Positions 6,528 through 43,430 of a stretch of 49,481 nt of DNA are shown here, piece after piece; the stretch's first letter is position 1; every line of letters begins with the position of its first letter. The DNA comes from Verrucomicrobiota bacterium (GTDB taxonomy: Bacteria; Verrucomicrobiota; Verrucomicrobiia; Chthoniobacterales; Terrimicrobiaceae), in NCBI GenBank assembly GCA_009886045.1, contig VFJO01000181.1, positions 1-49,481 of the forward strand. Reading direction: 5' to 3'. A program made the translations under genes and the position numbers. Below the pieces are notes generated by a model that did no database searches, was not told where the DNA came from, and saw only the letters and a program-made list of their open reading frames with translations.

Positions 6528-7343
6528 CTACTCGACAATATCCTCGAGAGGGATCACCTGCCCCTTGGCAAGATTGCTGGTCGCACAGCCGCGTTTTGAT
6601 GAAGCGATGAAGTCGAAGAATTCCTGCGCTTCGGGCCCCCATTCCGACTCACGCGCTTTCTCGAGAGCCGCTTTAACAGGCAGGCTGCTCCGAAAAACAA
6701 GTTTGAATGCGCGGCGGATTTCCGAGCGTGTCTCGGCTTTGAAGCCCGCGCGGCGAAGGCCGACGATATTGACTCCGGACAACAGATTGAAGAGCTGGGC
6801 CATTGCGAAAGGCGGGACGTCTTTGTTGAACTGCGAGCCGCCGGAGATCATGGCGCGTTTTCCGATTCGGACGAATTGGTGAAATACAGCCCCTCCGCCA
6901 AGAACAGCTCCGTCACCAACCTGTGCGTAACCGCCGAGAAGGCAGTTATTCACTATGACGACCTCGTTGCCGACTTGCACGTTATGACCGAGATGGCAGC
7001 CAACCATAAGAAAACACTTGTCGCCAATACTCGTTAGGGTGCCCTCCTTCGTTCCGCGATGGATCGTCACATATTCGCGGATCCGGTTATGGTTGCCGAT
7101 GACGACCGAGCTTTTGATTTCGGGTGAGTGGGCGTAATCCTGCGGTGGCGCGCCAATCACCGCGCCGTAGCCGACGGTGTTATCCTCCCCCAGCGTAGAA
7201 CCACCTTCAATAACGGCATGCGCTTGAATGACGCAGCCTGCACCGATGACGACCCCCGCCCCAATGATCGCCCCGGGGCCGACTTCGACATCTTCGCCTA
7301 AGTGAGCCTCAGGTGACACGATAGCTGTTGGATGGATTTTCAT
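6528..7343 (-). CDS. lpxA: Acyl-ACP--UDP-N-acetylglucosamine O-acyltransferase
   Basis: LpxA catalyses the first step of lipid A synthesis, adding a 3-hydroxyacyl chain to UDP-GlcNAc. The 271 residues begin with left-handed beta-helix hexapeptide repeats. Next come NRIREYVTIHRGT and the active-site region CHLGHN (second His is the catalytic base), and the C-terminal helices begin at GVNIVGLRRAGF. The residue aligning with E. coli Gly173, the acyl-length ruler, is Gly here (SGGS), which suggests a long chain. The residue aligning with E. coli His144 is Tyr (LLGGY), which is unusual. It ends with TAG. It overlaps radC by ATGA and is not next to lpxD, fabZ or lpxB. Confidence 0.92.
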   Translation of the reverse strand: MKIHPTAIVSPEAHLGEDVEVGPGAIIGAGVVIGAGCVIQAHAVIEGGSTLGEDNTVGYGAVIGAPPQDYAHSPEIKSSVVIGNHNRIREYVTIHRGTKEGTLTSIGDKCFLMVGCHLGHNVQVGNEVVIVNNCLLGGYAQVGDGAVLGGGAVFHQFVRIGKRAMISGGSQFNKDVPPFAMAQLFNLLSGVNIVGLRRAGFKAETRSEIRRAFKLVFRSSLPVKAALEKARESEWGPEAQEFFDFIASSKRGCATSNLAKGQVIPLEDIVE

Positions 7344-33692: not shown

Positions 33693-34114
33693 TCGCTCAC
33701 CTCGCCTCCAAGCAACGCGTTCTCATGCTTGGAGGTCTGGCCATTGTTTCACACGGCCTCGCCCGGGCTACTTTTGACGCCGATATCTGGCTCGACCCGC
33801 TACTGACTCTCGAGGATTGGTGCACTGCAGTATTGGAGCTGAAAAGACTTTGCCCCCATCTCAAGATTCTGGCCTTGGCTGTCTGGACAGAAATCCCGGA
33901 TGGCAAGCTTGCAGATATTGTCGAGAGGGATGGGGCTATTCGAATCTTTGGAGCAACCCAACCAATCGATGTTTTTCGATGTCCCAATGAAATTCCCATC
34001 GCAGAGTTTGAATCTGCGTGGATGCGTTCACTCCCACTTCAGGACGGAACGCGCCTGCCAGATGAAATCGACCTTCTCATGACCAAGCAACTCACCGGCG
34101 CGACAAGGACATGA
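33662..34114 (+). CDS. Nucleotidyltransferase-like protein (DUF6036-type), frame broken at its end
   Basis: The protein has about 150 residues. VLMLGGLAIVSHGLARATFDADIWLDP matches the GG[LM]A...R.T.D.D signature of minimal nucleotidyltransferases such as DUF6036 and AbiEii-like proteins. The start is unsure: ATG at 33662 or TTG at 33689, which overlaps the previous stop. The frame stops at TKQLTGATRT, just where the family expects a Lys-Asp-x-x-Asp-Ile motif. That motif (RDKDMMDIAFLE) is found in the -1 frame from 34099 and continues into the next ORF. I infer a one-base frameshift or an unusual coupled split gene. Confidence 0.6.
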   Translation: MENPVNTPGLIAHLASKQRVLMLGGLAIVSHGLARATFDADIWLDPLLTLEDWCTAVLELKRLCPHLKILALAVWTEIPDGKLADIVERDGAIRIFGATQPIDVFRCPNEIPIAEFESAWMRSLPLQDGTRLPDEIDLLMTKQLTGATRT

Positions 34115-34350
34115 TGGATATAGCTTTCCTCGAAAACAAGGCTGAAAAGCGTTATATCATTGAACTTCAATCTTCTTCAGCGGAGAAGGCCATTCAAATG
34201 CTTCAAAGATTTCTTACTCCAAGAGTGGCTGAACAAGCTCTTTCCCATCCAGATGCTGAAGTTCGGAACCTTGCTTTGCGTTATCTCCGTGAATTGGCGA
34301 ACGACAATGATCCCTTTGCCGCTGAAATCTTAAAATCCATCGGTCCATAG
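34111..34350 (+). CDS. C-terminal part of the split nucleotidyltransferase-like gene
   Basis: The frame has 79 residues, starting MMDIAFLENKAEKRY. Reading the same frame upstream gives RDKD directly before, which completes the usual R-x-KD-x-x-DI-x-FLE block of nucleotidyltransferase-like proteins. The rest is helical and resembles a short C-terminal domain. Its ATG overlaps the stop of the upstream frame as ATGA, so it may be translated separately by coupling. As a stand-alone protein it has no recognisable function. Confidence 0.5.
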   Translation: MMDIAFLENKAEKRYIIELQSSSAEKAIQMLQRFLTPRVAEQALSHPDAEVRNLALRYLRELANDNDPFAAEILKSIGP

Positions 34351-34394
34351 TTCCGTTTTGAAAAATCCGAGTTTCCGTGTAATCGAGTAATCAT

Positions 34395-34633
34395 ATGAAT
34401 GTCACGATCAGTCTTGATGACGAAGTCTGCCGCTTGACAAGGCACAGGGCGGTGGATGCAAAAACATCTCTCTCAGGTTGGTTGGCGCAATTAGTGAAAA
34501 AAGAAGTGCTCAAAAGCGAACCTCGCCGCGAAGCGAACTTGCTCGATCTTTTAGGAGACTCCGAAGCGGGGTAGGTTGACTTGGAAATCCCACGATTCAA
34601 AGAAAGCCTGGCACCTGCCGATCTGCATGCCTG
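34395..34633 (+). pseudogene. VapB-like antitoxin gene interrupted by an amber codon
   Basis: The frame MNVTISLDDEVCRLTRHRA... is a ribbon-helix-helix antitoxin start. It runs 59 codons to TAG at 34572-34574 and then continues in frame as VDLEIPRFKESLAPADLHA to a TGA that overlaps the toxin ATG by 8 bases. That overlap suggests the original antitoxin reached the TGA and that the TAG is a later nonsense mutation. The shorter 59-residue product, if made, would keep the DNA-binding half and lose the part that usually wraps the toxin. Confidence 0.6.
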
Positions 34634-35061
34634 AATTCCTGCTCGATACAAATGTGGTATCCAAGTTGAGGCGCGCCAAAAAATGCGATCCGTCCGTTGC
34701 AGCGTAGCAAGCGGCTCAACTCGTCGAATCCTGCTACCTGAGCGTGATTTCCTTGATGGAAATTAGACTCGGCATCGAAATGGCAAAACGCCGTGACGCC
34801 GTCGGAGCAAACGCGCTCGCCAGGTAGTATGAAGGACAGTTGAAAGCCGGCTTCGCAGGGAGAATTCTCGGTGCTAATGAGTTCGTTGCCGAAGAGTGTG
34901 CCACCTTGCATGCAAAACGAGCCCGCCCCTTTCGCGATGCCCTCATTCTTGCCACGGCGAAAGTGCATCGATTGACCGTTGTCACGCGAAATGAGATCGA
35001 CTTCATCGATGAAGGAACACCGGTGCTCAACCCTTGGAATTTTCTAAAATCTGTTCGCTAA
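34627..35061 (+). pseudogene. VapC/FitB-type PIN toxin gene with two in-frame amber codons
   Basis: The 144-codon frame has PIN-domain features: FLLDTNVVSKLRRAKKCDP with the first catalytic Asp, YLSVISLMEIRLGIE with the Glu, PFRDALILATA with the third acidic residue, and RLTVVTRNEIDF and LNPW at the end. TAG codons interrupt it at 34705-34707 (after PSVAA) and 34825-34827 (after ANALAR). In FitB-type proteins both positions usually carry Trp, so each is explained by TGG to TAG. There are no frameshifts and the length is normal. It is very likely inactive. Confidence 0.75.
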
Positions 35062-35251
35062 AAACCCCATCACCACATGAAAATCCTCCTCACTAGAATC
35101 TGCGGCTTCGCTGGATCTGTCATCACACGCACGCTGCTCGAGCATCGAGCCGATCTCCAAATCTTCTGCCTCGACAACCTCTCGCGTCCAGGCAGTGAGG
35201 CGAATCTGGAATCCCTCCGCGCGCTGGGCTGCGACATCCGCATCGGCGATG
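35056..35251 (+). repeat. Inverted partial copy of the second epimerase gene start
   Basis: These 196 bases are nearly identical to the complement of 38557-38751, including about 20 bases before the ATG and the first 58 codons of the epimerase. Differences are few (for example one extra A, and G to A in codon 7). The two copies face each other across 3.3 kb. The left copy is abruptly joined to unrelated sequence at 35252. Confidence 0.85.
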
Positions 35252-35499
35252 CGTGTCGAGAGGGTGCGGGTGGCGTATTTTTCGAGTTGCTGGGAGTGGA
35301 TCGTTTGGATGCCATCGCGGGCGGCGCGGGCATTAAGCATGGCGTCAAGCTGGTAGAGTGTGCGAGCGAGGCCGGTCGTGCCACCGGAGCTCGTGAGAAT
35401 GGCATTTTTCCCCTTGTAGGAAATCGTGGTGGTGGCTTTTGCGGCGGGTATCTCTGCCCAGCCGAGGCGGTATTCGGCTTGGAATGGGCGGACAATTAA
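35077..35499 (+). pseudogene. Chimeric ORF: epimerase N-terminal fragment joined to antisense sequence
   Basis: Codons 1-58 match the start of the epimerase at 38731, with the Rossmann strand and TRICGFAGSV, where the first Gly of the motif has become Arg. From codon 59 the frame is only the complement of a DUF3108-like fragment and resembles nothing. The ORF is therefore an accident of rearrangement. The retained part lacks every catalytic residue. Confidence 0.75.
35252..35499 (-). pseudogene. DUF3108-like gene fragment
   Basis: Reading minus from about 35492, one frame encodes VRPFQAEYRLGWAEIPAAKA and then a stretch with SSGGTTGLARTLYQLDAM, roughly 80 residues. This resembles the start of DUF3108 proteins, exported beta-rich proteins with the pattern GLARxLYxLDA. 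It has neither start nor end: one side joins the TetR fragment, the other the epimerase copy. Family assignment is by eye and moderate. Confidence 0.45.
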
Positions 35500-35752
35500 G
35501 AGAAAGCTGGATACCTGTCTGGCAAATCTCGTAAAGCAACTCGCCTTTGTTTTTGTAATACGAGTAGATAAATGGTTTATTTACATTTAGTTGTTCTGCC
35601 ACAGCATCTAGAGTCGTCGTTTTATACCCGTGTGTGTAAAATAAGTAGCTCGCTTCTACAAGGATACGCCGCTTCTTATAAGCTATTATCTCATCCATTA
35701 ATTGTGTCGATTTTCCAACTTTAATTACGGATTCTGGTATCAATTTTCCCAA
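35345..35752 (-). pseudogene. Truncated TetR-family regulator
   Basis: Residues 20-84 form the TetR helix-turn-helix domain: RILVEASYLFYTHGYKTTTL, then DAVAEQLNVNKPFIYSYYKNKGELL. After residue 84 (base 35500) the frame enters DUF3108-like sequence out of register and ends in an unrelated tail. The ligand-binding domain (about 120 residues) is missing, so it could at best bind DNA without responding. It lies seven bases downstream of the alcohol dehydrogenase gene on the same strand. An intact version may once have regulated that gene. Confidence 0.7.
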
Positions 35753-35759
35753 CTTGCGA

Positions 35760-36935
35760 TTAACCCATCGCTGTCCGCAGGATGCTCATTACATCCTCGG
35801 ATTTGTTTATCGGACGTGGGTTTGTGCGTCCACAGATGTCTTCAAGAGTATAATCAGCGATCAGTTGCAACTGGTTTTCGGTAACCCCCACTTCACGCAA
35901 TGATCGCGGCATACCTAGGCCTCGGATTAGCGTATCCAGCAACTCCGACGCCGATTTGCTTGAATCGCCCAAACATGCGCTGATCCGCTTTTGTCGGTGC
36001 GCGTTCACTTCAACGTTGTAAGCCTGAACAAAGGGTGACATCACGCAAGAAGTGTACCCATGGGGGACATTGCATGTGCCGCCCAATACATGCCCGATAG
36101 CATGGCTTGCCCCCATCGGGACGCCTGCAATAATCGGGATCATCGACTGCCATGCCCCGATTTGGCATTTCAGACGCGCGTCAAGATTCTCAGGATTTGC
36201 TTTAACTTCCCACAAGCCCTCGGCAAGTAGGCGCAGCGCGCTGTCCGCCAGCCCATCGCAGAAATCATTAGAAAGCATCGACGCCAGCGTTTCCGTGGCA
36301 TGATCCACTGAACGAACACCGGTCGATAACCAAAGCCATTCAGGCGTATGCAAAGTAATTGCCGGATCAAGCACGACGCAAACAGGAACCATGTCACGTT
36401 GGGAATAAGCCTGCTTTTGCTTTATTTTTTCGTCGGTTGCGCCAGAAAGCGGGTTAAACTCTCCGCCCGAAAGGGTTGTCGGGACACAAATCGCGCGAAC
36501 ATCCGGGCCATCAAATACTGGGTTCGTCACAGTTCCGTCTTCTTCCACACGGGTGCGAAAATTATCAAACTGCTCTACCGTTGTGATATTGTGCTTGAGG
36601 CAGATGAGCATGATTTTTCCTGCATCCGTCACGGATCCACCGCCAACTGTAACAATGAGATCCGCGCCCACCGACCGCGCATGTTCCGCTGCCTTAAGAA
36701 TTTCACAACGAGGTGCATGCGGATGGATGCCGTCATGGGTAGCAATGTGGCTCGAGCCTAATGCAGCCTCGATTCGACGGATCTCGTCCGTTTTCTGGTT
36801 AAGATGTGAACTGGCCAAGATGAAAACCTTGCGGCCGCCGCGATTAGACGACTCTTCAGCAACAGCCTCTGCTGCCGGCATTCCAAGCGAAACGCGTTCT
36901 GTCGCACTTAAAACGACTTGTGATTTAACTAACAT
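35760..36935 (-). CDS. Iron-containing alcohol dehydrogenase family protein
   Basis: The protein has 391 residues of the group III alcohol dehydrogenase/maleylacetate reductase superfamily. The nucleotide-binding motif GGGSVTDAGK and ICVPTTLSGGEFNPLSGATD are typical. The metal His residues are present in VDHATE, GASHAIGH and VPHGYTS. The Asp that supplies the first metal ligand in FucO-type enzymes (D-x3-H) aligns with Arg here (GVRSVDHA), closer to maleylacetate-reductase-like members, which work without iron. The substrate is unknown. It is the only long intact gene within the damaged stretch between the two epimerases. Confidence 0.85.
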   Translation of the reverse strand: MLVKSQVVLSATERVSLGMPAAEAVAEESSNRGGRKVFILASSHLNQKTDEIRRIEAALGSSHIATHDGIHPHAPRCEILKAAEHARSVGADLIVTVGGGSVTDAGKIMLICLKHNITTVEQFDNFRTRVEEDGTVTNPVFDGPDVRAICVPTTLSGGEFNPLSGATDEKIKQKQAYSQRDMVPVCVVLDPAITLHTPEWLWLSTGVRSVDHATETLASMLSNDFCDGLADSALRLLAEGLWEVKANPENLDARLKCQIGAWQSMIPIIAGVPMGASHAIGHVLGGTCNVPHGYTSCVMSPFVQAYNVEVNAHRQKRISACLGDSSKSASELLDTLIRGLGMPRSLREVGVTENQLQLIADYTLEDICGRTNPRPINKSEDVMSILRTAMG

Positions 36936-37389
36936 AAAAAATTCCCAACGTTTTGCTGAAACATATATTACAAGGTAGCCTGGTTTTCCTGCGGGTCAAA
37001 TTGTAACGTGTGGAATTAATGGCGAGGATGCTTTTACACTGCGGGTCCGACATCTGCGATTTCGTGCTTCGGCTTAGCGCAAATCAAGGATGACCTGGTA
37101 TCTTGCAATTCCTCTGAGTGCCAAGATGGCATCTCCAAAGCGCTCTGATCCGCACTAAGTTCTTGCCAAAGGATTACCATCAGTTTTAACTACTCAACAC
37201 GAGGTAATTGTTTTGGGTCCGCAGCGCTCCTGGAATCAACTTACTGCGATGTGGACGACGGGCAAGTATTTTTCTGCCAAACGTCCCCTATGAGGTATCC
37301 CTGCTTGCTTCTGGCGCAGAGAGTGCACAAGCAGCCTTCTGCGGCAGAAGCACATTATGAAGATGTTTAAGATTAACGCCCTTTTTGAA
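36936..37389. other. 454-base noncoding stretch
   Basis: I see no frame with protein-like sequence and no clear hairpin or repeat. The side next to 36935 must hold the promoter of the alcohol dehydrogenase. An A/T-rich segment, TGTAATATAT on minus, lies about 30 bases before its ATG, but the spacing to a TTGACC upstream is too long for a standard promoter. Confidence 0.4.
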
Positions 37390-37518
37390 CTATAATTTTT
37401 TGGCGTCGATGTCGAAAAGCCAGTTGATCGCACCCTTGACTTTCTGCAGATCTGCATCTGTTAGTCGTCCACTCTGCTCTTTGACGCGTTCGCTCCCGCT
37501 CATACTCGATTGTGGCAT
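37390..37518 (-). CDS. Short CsbD-like remnant
   Basis: This 42-codon frame ends the intergenic stretch. Residues SERVKEQSGRLTDADLQKVKG resemble the VKExWGKLTDDDLxxIxGK core of CsbD stress proteins. The N-terminal half of the usual 60-70 residues is missing or unrelated (MPQSSMSG), and the end, INWLFDIDAKKL, does not fit. No ribosome binding site is visible. I take it for a remnant or a diverged small protein. Confidence 0.35.
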   Translation of the reverse strand: MPQSSMSGSERVKEQSGRLTDADLQKVKGAINWLFDIDAKKL

Positions 37519-37648
37519 TTCTGCTGCATTTGGGTCTAAACAGGAATCGAGCGTTTGAGGAAACACAAGGTGGAGCAGGCGTTGCTTGGTAAATGGAAAA
37601 AGCCCTACTGCAAAGCAGGTTTTCGTTCTGAAATAGCCGGGTTGCGTT

Positions 37649-38731
37649 TCAGCGCGTGACGAGATCGAGCCAGTTGGGATTCGTTTCGGCGTGGCTGTGG
37701 ATTTCTTCGAGGATTTGGGGCAAGGCCGTGGTGGGCTTCCAGGCCCAGGCTTCTTGCGCGAGGCTGGGATCGAGGATGGCCCAGGGGATGTCAAAGGGGC
37801 GGCTGGATTGGTCGCTGGAGATCAAGTTGGGATCGTGTGCGGGATTTGCGAGGCCGATTTTTTCTGCGCACCATGCGGAGAGTTCGCGGAGGGAGATAGC
37901 GTTTTTGTGGCCTCCGGCGAGGTTGATGGTGCGGGGTTTTTCGGTGCCGCGAAAATCCATCTGCCTGAGGAGGAGCGGCACGATGTCGCGGGGATGCAGG
38001 CAGTCGCGCACTTGCAGGCCTGAGCCGCCGAAGCCGATGTATTTCAGCGGACGCTGGGCGCGCCACGAGTGGATCCAGAAGGAGAAGATGCCTTGGTCGG
38101 CTTTTCCAAATTGCCCTGCCCCGGCGAGGACGCCGCAGCGGTTGATCCAAACGGGAAATCCGTAGGCGTCACCGTATTCCAAAGCGAGCCATTCGGAGCA
38201 GAGCTTCGTGCTTCCGTAGAGGCTGATCGGGGGCGCGGTGGAGAAGGTTTCTGTGATTCCTCTGCGGGACCATCCGGGGCCTGACGCGAGGGATGGCAAC
38301 TCGAAGCGCGCGCGGGTTGTTTCCATGGGCAAACCGGCGAGCTCGCCGATCGAATACACACGGCTTGTGGAGAGTAATGTGAAGCCGGCTTTCCAGGTTT
38401 TGCAAAGCTCGAGGAGGTTCACCGTGCCGTAGAGATTTTGGTCCACCAGATCACGGCTCGACGAGCCATCAACGCCTGCGAGAACGCTGGGATTGGCCGC
38501 GCAGTCGATGATCCAATCCACCGCCGGAAGGCTTTCAAGCAAAGTCCGGTCGCGCACATCGCCGATGCGGATGTCGCAGCCCAGCGCGCGGAGGGATTCC
38601 AGATTCGTCTCACTGCCTGGACGCGAGAGGTTGTCGAGGCCGAGGATTTGAAGGTCGGCTCGATGCTCAAGCAGCGTGCGTGTGATGACGGATCCAGCGA
38701 AGCCGCAGATTCCAGTGAGGAGAATTTTCAT
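37649..38731 (-). CDS. NAD-dependent sugar-nucleotide epimerase/dehydratase
   Basis: This is a second extended short-chain dehydrogenase, 360 residues. It has the Rossmann motif TGICGFAGSVITR, IIDCAANPSVLAG, the catalytic STSRVYSIGELAG region and PISLYGSTKLCSEWLALEYG with the Tyr-x3-Lys pair. The body and the phrase RCGVLAGAGQFGK relate it to CDP-paratose 2-epimerase-like proteins, as is its counterpart at 32381. The frame is open 17 codons further upstream, but similarity begins at MKILLTG. The first 58 codons are duplicated in inverse orientation at 35077. The two epimerases probably acted in one pathway for a surface sugar. Confidence 0.85.
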   Translation of the reverse strand: MKILLTGICGFAGSVITRTLLEHRADLQILGLDNLSRPGSETNLESLRALGCDIRIGDVRDRTLLESLPAVDWIIDCAANPSVLAGVDGSSSRDLVDQNLYGTVNLLELCKTWKAGFTLLSTSRVYSIGELAGLPMETTRARFELPSLASGPGWSRRGITETFSTAPPISLYGSTKLCSEWLALEYGDAYGFPVWINRCGVLAGAGQFGKADQGIFSFWIHSWRAQRPLKYIGFGGSGLQVRDCLHPRDIVPLLLRQMDFRGTEKPRTINLAGGHKNAISLRELSAWCAEKIGLANPAHDPNLISSDQSSRPFDIPWAILDPSLAQEAWAWKPTTALPQILEEIHSHAETNPNWLDLVTR

Positions 38732-38751
38732 GTGGTGATGGGGTTTTAGCG
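38557..38751 (-). repeat. Right copy of the inverted epimerase-start duplication
   Basis: The copy covers the start of the intact epimerase gene plus about 20 bases of its leader. Its counterpart is 35056-35251 on plus. Homology stops at the GGCGATG after codon 58 on one side and at CGCTAAAA upstream on the other. Confidence 0.85.
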
Positions 38752-38778
38752 TTTTGCCGTGGGATGAGGAGGGAAAAA

Positions 38779-39075
38779 TCAACGACCTCGCAATGTCGAG
38801 TTCATCGCAGTAAACACTTCATAAACAATTGAGCGTCGCTCACAAAAAAGACAGTCGATCTCAATAGTGCCGGTGGATTGTTCCTCGCGATAGGCGAGGA
38901 TAACCCGATATGAGCGCACTCGAAGTCTGAAGAATCCTTGGAGCTCATGCTCCAAGGCCTTGATGTCGCCCTTTTCATCTTCAAGCAGGCGCAGCGCTTG
39001 GCGCAGACGCTTTCTCGGTTCGGGAGCGAGACACAGGACGAACCTCCTGACTTGCTCCGAGATGTTGACCTTCAT
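38779..39075 (-). CDS. RelE/ParE-family toxin
   Basis: The protein has 98 residues with the RelE/ParE fold pattern: an N-terminal strand (MKVNISEQVRRFVL), two helices (PEPRKRLRQALRLLEDEKGD), then strands HELQGFFRLRVRSYRVILAY and a C-terminal strand. The basic residues in RLRVRSYRVI match positions needed for mRNA cleavage in RelE or gyrase binding in ParE. Its ATG overlaps the antitoxin stop (ATGA) and it is the second gene, the usual order. No damage is seen, unlike the vapBC pair 4 kb away. Confidence 0.85.
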   Translation of the reverse strand: MKVNISEQVRRFVLCLAPEPRKRLRQALRLLEDEKGDIKALEHELQGFFRLRVRSYRVILAYREEQSTGTIEIDCLFCERRSIVYEVFTAMNSTLRGR

Positions 39076-39323
39076 GGAGCTTCGTCAAGAGAATCAAGCG
39101 GCAGGAATTTCGTCTTGCCCGCTTTGTAGTCTCGGATCGCATCCATTGCTTCGGGGTTCGCCATGATTTCCATGGTCTCCAGCATGGCTTCAAATCTCTC
39201 GGGTGAAAGAATGTAACCCACTGTTTTGTCGCGGCGGGTTATAATAACCGTCTGCTCTTCCGCCTCGCGCAGAATAGCGGGCAGTCCAGCTTGAGCTTCT
39301 GTGACTGAGTATGTAATCGCCAT
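39072..39323 (-). CDS. Phd/YefM-family antitoxin
   Basis: The protein has 83 residues. The N-terminal half, ITYSVTEAQAGLPAILREAE then TVIITRRDKTVGYILSPERF, is the Phd/YefM DNA-binding fold. The acidic C-terminal part (residues 50-83) would wrap and neutralise the toxin. It precedes the RelE/ParE toxin with an ATGA overlap. A convincing promoter and an adjacent small palindrome lie directly upstream, consistent with autoregulation by the toxin-antitoxin complex. Confidence 0.88.
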   Translation of the reverse strand: MAITYSVTEAQAGLPAILREAEEQTVIITRRDKTVGYILSPERFEAMLETMEIMANPEAMDAIRDYKAGKTKFLPLDSLDEAP

Positions 39324-42296: not shown

Positions 42297-42547
42297 TTTC
42301 TTTTATTTGGTTGAAATGACGACGATTCGTTTTTGTGGCGGTAGGTGATGCGTCCCTTGGTTAGATCGTAGGGCGACATTTCCAGCATGACGCGATCTCC
42401 AGGAAGAATGCGAATGAAGTGCAGACGCATCTTGCCAGAGATGTGGGCGAGGACGCGATGGCCGTTCTCCAGTTCAATCCTGAACATGGTATTTGGCAAT
42501 AGCTCCACGACCTTACCCTCTACTTCGATAGCGTCTTTCTTGGCCAT
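42293..42547 (-). CDS. infA: Translation initiation factor IF-1
   Basis: IF-1 is an OB-fold protein that binds the A site during initiation. The 84 residues contain [39 protein letters not shown] and the end [16 protein letters not shown], all conserved, followed by a 12-residue tail. It is about 12 residues longer than E. coli IF-1. Its start overlaps the 3' end of map by 28 bases, and its stop overlaps rpmJ. Confidence 0.97.
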
Positions 42548-43284
42548 GTCAATACTTCTGGAGCGTGGTCTGTAATTAAAACGGTATGCTCAAAATGAGC
42601 GGAGGGGAGGCCATCGGCAGTAACGGCAGTCCACTTGTCGGCGAGAACTTTGACCTCAGCTCGGCCCATGTTGATCATAGGCTCGATCGCGAGCGTCATG
42701 CCGGCTTTGAGTTTCGGGCCGCTTCCGCGTTTCCCAAAATTTGGCACTTGGGGGTCTTCATGAAGTTTGCGTCCAACGCCGTGGCCAACGAATTCCCTTA
42801 CGACACTGAATCCGTTTTTAACGGCCTCAGTTTCGACAAAATTTGAAATATCACCAACGCGGTGGCCAGGACGGGCAAGCTGCACGGCACCGTTGAGGAT
42901 TTCTTCCGTCACGGTCAGAAGACGCTCGACTTCGGGATCAATCAGGCCACAAGGAACCGAGGTGGCGTTGTCGCCGATCCACCCATCGCGAATGATGCCT
43001 ACGTCCATCTTGACGATGTCTCCATAGGCGATCGCCCGCGAGCTGCCGATGCCATGAACGACCTCCTCATTGAGACTAATGCAAATGTGACCGGGAAATT
43101 TTTTGTATCCGAGGAAAGCACTGCGTACGCCGGCAGCGGACATCAATTGGGAAGCGGCATGATCAATTTCGCCAGTGGTCACACCGGGTGCAATTCGCGA
43201 GGCGAGTTCACTGAGAATCTGCGCTGCTGTCTCGCCGGCTTGACGCATCTTCTCAATCTCGTGAGGGCGTTTGATGGTAATCAC
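42520..43284 (-). CDS. map: Methionine aminopeptidase, type I
   Basis: Map removes the initiator methionine. I start it at GTG 43284, which has a perfect AAAGGAGG eight bases upstream and gives [18 protein letters not shown], where family similarity begins; the frame is open 35 codons further. The product is 254 residues. Metal ligands are visible as Asp in [17 protein letters not shown], His in [14 protein letters not shown] and Glu in TLAIEPMIN and AHFEHTVLI. It follows secY after a 146-base gap; adk, often between the two, is absent. Confidence 0.95.
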
Positions 43285-43430
43285 GCGGCCTCCTTTACGC
43301 TGCTGGTGGGTCGCCAATCGCAAACATGAAGAGGCTGCAAAAATGCAAGAAGGCGGATCTTGGTGTCCTGACCGAAAAATGGTGGACAAAACGAAGCAGC
43401 GCGGGTTTTCAAGACTACAGAGGGCACACG

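What the first reader, a model, noticed from the sequence alone, without database searches (positions are those of the whole stretch)
34395..35061. vapBC pair with three in-frame amber codons and no frameshift
The antitoxin frame is cut by TAG at 34572. The PIN toxin frame is cut by TAG at 34705 and at 34825. Otherwise both frames run at normal length, and the antitoxin frame ends at a TGA overlapping the toxin ATG. The two toxin codons stand where FitB/VapC relatives carry Trp, so each is one TGG-to-TAG change. Three nonsense changes of the same kind without any indel is an odd decay pattern. Stop-codon recoding is unlikely, because secY, rpsM, lpxA and the HU gene here end in TAG. Amber suppression or mutation biased to G-to-A remain possible.
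Basis: partly seen in the sequence, partly recalled or inferred. Interest (0 to 1): 0.6.

Follow-up and report, generated by a model that had tools for sequence, protein, structure and literature searches.

The report
Decayed vapBC toxin-antitoxin pseudogene pair
A bacterial toxin-antitoxin gene pair has been broken by three point mutations to stop codons in a Spartobacteria-type genome, while a sister species keeps the same pair intact at the same place; it is an ordinary dead gene pair, not a case of altered stop-codon reading.

Summary
The three in-frame TAG codons are real in the sequence (34572, 34705, 34825). The pair is a FitB/VapC-type PIN toxin with its antitoxin. A same-genus genome (G012; L046, a Spartobacteria MAG) holds the orthologous pair at the same site. 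The two copies align over 918 bp without a gap at 94.8% identity, and all three codons there are sense: GAG in the antitoxin, TGG and TGG in the toxin. So the loss is on the window's branch. The antitoxin stop is a G-to-T transversion, not the same kind of change as the other two. The pair shows no purifying selection (dN/dS about 1.0-1.5, against 0.04-0.16 in four neighbouring genes). A release factor 1 gene is present, none of 40 tRNAs found has a CUA anticodon, conserved genes end in TAG, and none of the other 22 PIN matches in the genome contains a stop. Suppression or recoding is very unlikely. The locus lies in a rearranged patch. Three stops among roughly 10-22 neutral substitutions is more than expected (P about 0.002-0.02, judged after the fact). 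Missing indels are unremarkable at this divergence. Verdict: ordinary pseudogene pair, low interest.

The parts
34395..34634 (+). vapB-like antitoxin pseudogene, TAG at codon 60 (34572-34574)
   Evidence: ortholog in L046 4766-5005 is open, 79 aa, ungapped
34627..35061 (+). vapC/FitB-like PIN toxin pseudogene, TAG at codons 27 (34705) and 67 (34825)
   Evidence: Pfam PIN 43.5 bits on the read-through; ortholog in L046 4998-5432 is open, 144 aa
33754..34333 (.). 580-bp stretch absent from the relative, directly upstream of the pair
   Evidence: window 33753 and 34334 both align to L046 position 4705
35056..35251 (+). leftover copy of the 5' end of the NAD-dependent epimerase gene, inverted duplicate of 38556-38751
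35252..37648 (-). segment with an Fe-containing alcohol dehydrogenase gene (35760-36935) and a TetR N-terminal fragment, lying between the epimerase leftover and the full epimerase gene
37649..38782 (-). full-length NAD-dependent epimerase gene, inverted relative to its position next to vapC in the relative

Best explanation
The locus is a dead type II vapBC toxin-antitoxin pair in a Spartobacteria-type (Verrucomicrobiota) genome. After the split from the nearest relative held, in which the pair is intact at the same site, the window lineage gained two Trp-to-amber changes in the toxin and one Glu-to-amber change in the antitoxin, plus other unconstrained missense changes such as Glu13Lys in the conserved toxin motif (shown by alignment). 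Translation would end after 26 residues of toxin, and fragments made by re-initiation would lack the first active-site aspartate. The antitoxin would be cut to 59 residues, losing the C-terminal part that in VapB proteins usually binds the toxin (inferred from family knowledge). The toxin most likely failed first, since loss of the antitoxin with a live toxin should be harmful; after that both genes were free to collect stops (inferred). No suppressor or recoding is needed.
For: Ortholog in the same genus at the same site, no stops, 918 bp ungapped at 94.8%. Outgroups L005, L006 and L007 carry Trp at both toxin positions, and L005 and L006 carry Glu at the antitoxin position, so the stops are derived. 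dN/dS (NG86) is 1.03 in the toxin and 1.53 in the antitoxin against 0.06-0.16 in four neighbouring genes; 19.5 nonsynonymous to 5.5 synonymous changes against 47 to 168, Fisher P 4e-8. Glu13 of the LLDTNVVSEL motif is Lys in the window. RF1 gene above cut-off. 40 tRNAs, none CUA. 23 PIN matches in the genome, only this one with stops. rpsM, secY and HU end in TAG. Rearranged neighbourhood.
Against: Three stops among the estimated 10-22 substitutions of the window branch is more than neutral change predicts (P 0.002-0.018, post hoc). No frameshift has yet occurred. The catalytic acidic residues typical of PIN domains are still in place in the read-through frame.
Confidence: 0.93

Rival explanations
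1. Amber suppression or local recoding: TAG is read as an amino acid by a suppressor tRNA so that full-length toxin and antitoxin are made.
For: Both frames are otherwise full length and free of frameshifts; the genome is a draft of 340 contigs, so a tRNA could be missing.
Against: No CUA tRNA among 40, RF1 present, conserved genes end in TAG, sense codons in all near relatives, no other PIN gene of the genome contains a stop, dN/dS near 1.
Confidence: 0.02
2. Consensus or assembly error: the stops, or some of them, are not in the organism or are a minority variant taken into a metagenome consensus.
For: The genome is a fragmented draft assembly, and reads cannot be seen here.
Against: The stops sit among 23 other changed codons that look like unconstrained evolution, not isolated errors; the four flanking genes show normal dN/dS and open frames.
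Confidence: 0.03
3. A G-to-A biased mutation process, not ordinary decay, made the stops.
For: 5 of 11 polarised window-branch changes are G>A on the coding strand and none is C>T; the number of stops is above the neutral expectation.
Against: The antitoxin stop is G>T; six of the eleven changes are not G>A; the flanking 4.7 kb shows 48 G>A and 41 C>T differences, so no strand bias there; numbers are very small.
Confidence: 0.02

Closest known systems
VapBC type II toxin-antitoxin systems (PIN-domain toxin, Pfam PF01850), FitAB branch
   Same: PIN domain, small upstream antitoxin gene, 8-bp overlap of the two frames, best solved relative is FitB (2h1c, 2h1o, 2bsq)
   Different: both frames are interrupted by stop codons, so no functional pair is encoded
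Toxin-antitoxin pseudogenes in bacterial genomes (general knowledge, no paper read)
   Same: loss by nonsense changes and relaxed constraint, in a rearranged region
   Different: all lesions are TAG and there is no frameshift; more stops than expected for the number of substitutions

Membership tests
VapBC toxin-antitoxin | PIN domain toxin | tested here: met
   Pfam PF01850 43.5 bits over a cut-off of 23.6 for the read-through
VapBC toxin-antitoxin | antitoxin gene directly upstream, overlapping or abutting | tested here: met
   8-bp overlap; same arrangement in L046. The antitoxin itself matches no Pfam family above cut-off, even the intact one
VapBC toxin-antitoxin | intact open frames for both partners | tested here: not met
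   TAG at antitoxin codon 60 and toxin codons 27 and 67; it is therefore filed as a pseudogene pair
VapBC toxin-antitoxin | RNase activity of the toxin and its neutralisation by the antitoxin | not testable with these tools
   needs expression in a laboratory strain
Stop codon recoding / amber suppression | tRNA with CUA anticodon | tested here: not met
   none among 40 tRNAs; draft genome, 98.6% complete
Stop codon recoding / amber suppression | loss or change of release factor 1, or TAG avoided as a terminator | tested here: not met
   prfA model 436.7 bits over a cut-off of 423.25; rpsM, secY and HU end in TAG

The most novel reading that the evidence does not exclude
The excess of nonsense changes (three among about 10-22 substitutions, in both partners) reflects more than neutral decay: repeated selection for inactivation of the pair, or a local G-to-A biased mutation process.
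Probability: 0.06. Interest if true: 0.3.

Novelty: new member of a known kind. Interest (0 to 1): 0.1.

Why it matters
It shows a vapBC pair lost in one lineage while a close relative keeps it open, with both copies evolving without detectable purifying selection; this fits the view that chromosomal toxin-antitoxin pairs are often dispensable. It does not support any altered reading of TAG. If the excess of stops were real it would bear on whether toxin loss is selected, but one locus cannot show that.

Tried and rejected
Amber suppressor tRNA: searched by RF00005, RF01852 and an anticodon-arm pattern, none found; the one tRNA-Sec hit above cut-off is tRNA-Ser(UGA) by ARAGORN. Antisense frame 34597-34968(-), 123 aa: no family match, and it is also open in the relative, so it is taken as a shadow frame. 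PADLOC gave no match. Literature searches gave nothing specific to this locus. The hypothesis that relatives end naturally at the first TAG was rejected.

Full report
Observation. The antitoxin frame 34395-34634 has TAG at 34572 (codon 60) and ends at TGA 34632. The toxin frame runs from ATG 34627 to TAA 35059-35061 with TAG at 34705 (codon 27) and 34825 (codon 67). The frames overlap by eight bases. The read-through toxin scores 43.5 bits against Pfam PIN, and the intact relative's best solved match is FitB. The antitoxin, even the intact one, matches no Pfam family above cut-off.

Relatives. The window is contig C210 of a 3.52 Mb draft genome of 340 contigs, 98.6% complete. In 58 genomes searched, the closest toxin is in G012, same genus, 90% identical, with no stops; the same locus is L046, titled a Spartobacteria MAG. 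L046 and the window align over 4705 bp up to 33753, then over 918 bp (34334-35251) without any gap at 94.8%. There the three codons are GAG, TGG and TGG. More distant relatives L005, L006 and L007 also have Trp at both toxin positions, and L005 and L006 have Glu at the antitoxin position, so the stops arose on the window branch. FitB has Trp at the first toxin position only.

Constraint. Between window and L046 the toxin has dN/dS 1.03 and the antitoxin 1.53 (NG86). The four genes next to the pair have 0.06-0.16 (NG86) or 0.04-0.13 (YN00). Counted as changes, the pair has 19.5 nonsynonymous and 5.5 synonymous against 47 and 168 in those genes, Fisher P 4e-8. The polarised changes fall on both branches (window 11, relative 9, ambiguous 8), so the relative's copy also shows little constraint although it is open. 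One missense change on the window branch, Glu13Lys, hits the conserved LLDTNVVSEL motif.

Is TAG read through? A prfA (RF1) gene is present above the curated cut-off. RF00005 finds 40 tRNAs; ARAGORN gives each an anticodon and none is CUA. A few expected tRNAs (for example Ile-GAU and Ala-UGC, usually within rRNA operons) are not in the list, so the draft is not fully complete for tRNAs; this leaves a small gap in the argument. SecY, S13 and HU frames end in TAG by family match; the frames at 42520-43389 and 6528-7343, named map and lpxA from position and sequence only, also end in TAG. None of the other 22 PIN matches in the genome contains a stop. Together with the sense codons in relatives this makes suppression very unlikely.

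How odd is the pattern? Simulating neutral substitution on the intact pair with the base-change spectrum of the flank, 11 substitutions give 0.27 stops on average and 19 give 0.49. Three or more stops occur in 0.2-1.8% of trials for 10-22 substitutions, two or more in 3-11%. TAG, TAA and TGA are reached at 0.30, 0.32 and 0.38, so three TAGs have a chance of about 0.03 given three stops. These figures are post hoc, since the locus was picked because of its stops. If the first toxin stop was selected, only two further stops need explaining. Missing indels are not surprising, as one gap occurs in about 6.4 kb of alignment. The strand pattern (5 G>A, no C>T among 11 polarised changes) is suggestive at most.

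Neighbourhood. Relative to L046 the window has a 580-bp insertion just upstream of the pair and a segment with an Fe-type alcohol dehydrogenase gene and a TetR fragment downstream. The epimerase gene that follows vapC in the relative is inverted here, with a 196-bp leftover of its 5' end still attached to the vapC stop. So the pair sits in a rearranged patch, which fits loss of function.

Mechanism. Shown: both frames are interrupted, the interruptions are derived, and constraint is absent. Inferred: translation stops after 26 residues of toxin and 59 of antitoxin, giving no nuclease; the toxin died first, because losing the antitoxin before the toxin should be harmful.

Verdict. An ordinary pseudogene pair.

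Noticed in passing
34395-35061 against L046 4766-5432: Synonymous divergence of the pair (dS 0.02-0.045) is several times lower than in the neighbouring genes (0.13-0.30) and in the adjacent epimerase fragment (0.15), as if the pair had been exchanged between the lineages more recently.
   Followed up: partly
35056-35251 and 38556-38751: 196-bp inverted duplication of the epimerase 5' end, 94.9% identical, flanking an inserted segment; looks like the scar of an inversion with staggered breaks.
   Followed up: partly
38779-39323 (-): A Phd/YefM-type antitoxin gene (Pfam PF02604) overlapping a 98-aa frame without family match, a likely second toxin-antitoxin pair next to the inverted epimerase gene.
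   Followed up: no
33754-34333: 580-bp stretch absent from the relative; parts of it match two other genomes at 69-80% identity over 90-170 bp, identity unknown.
   Followed up: partly
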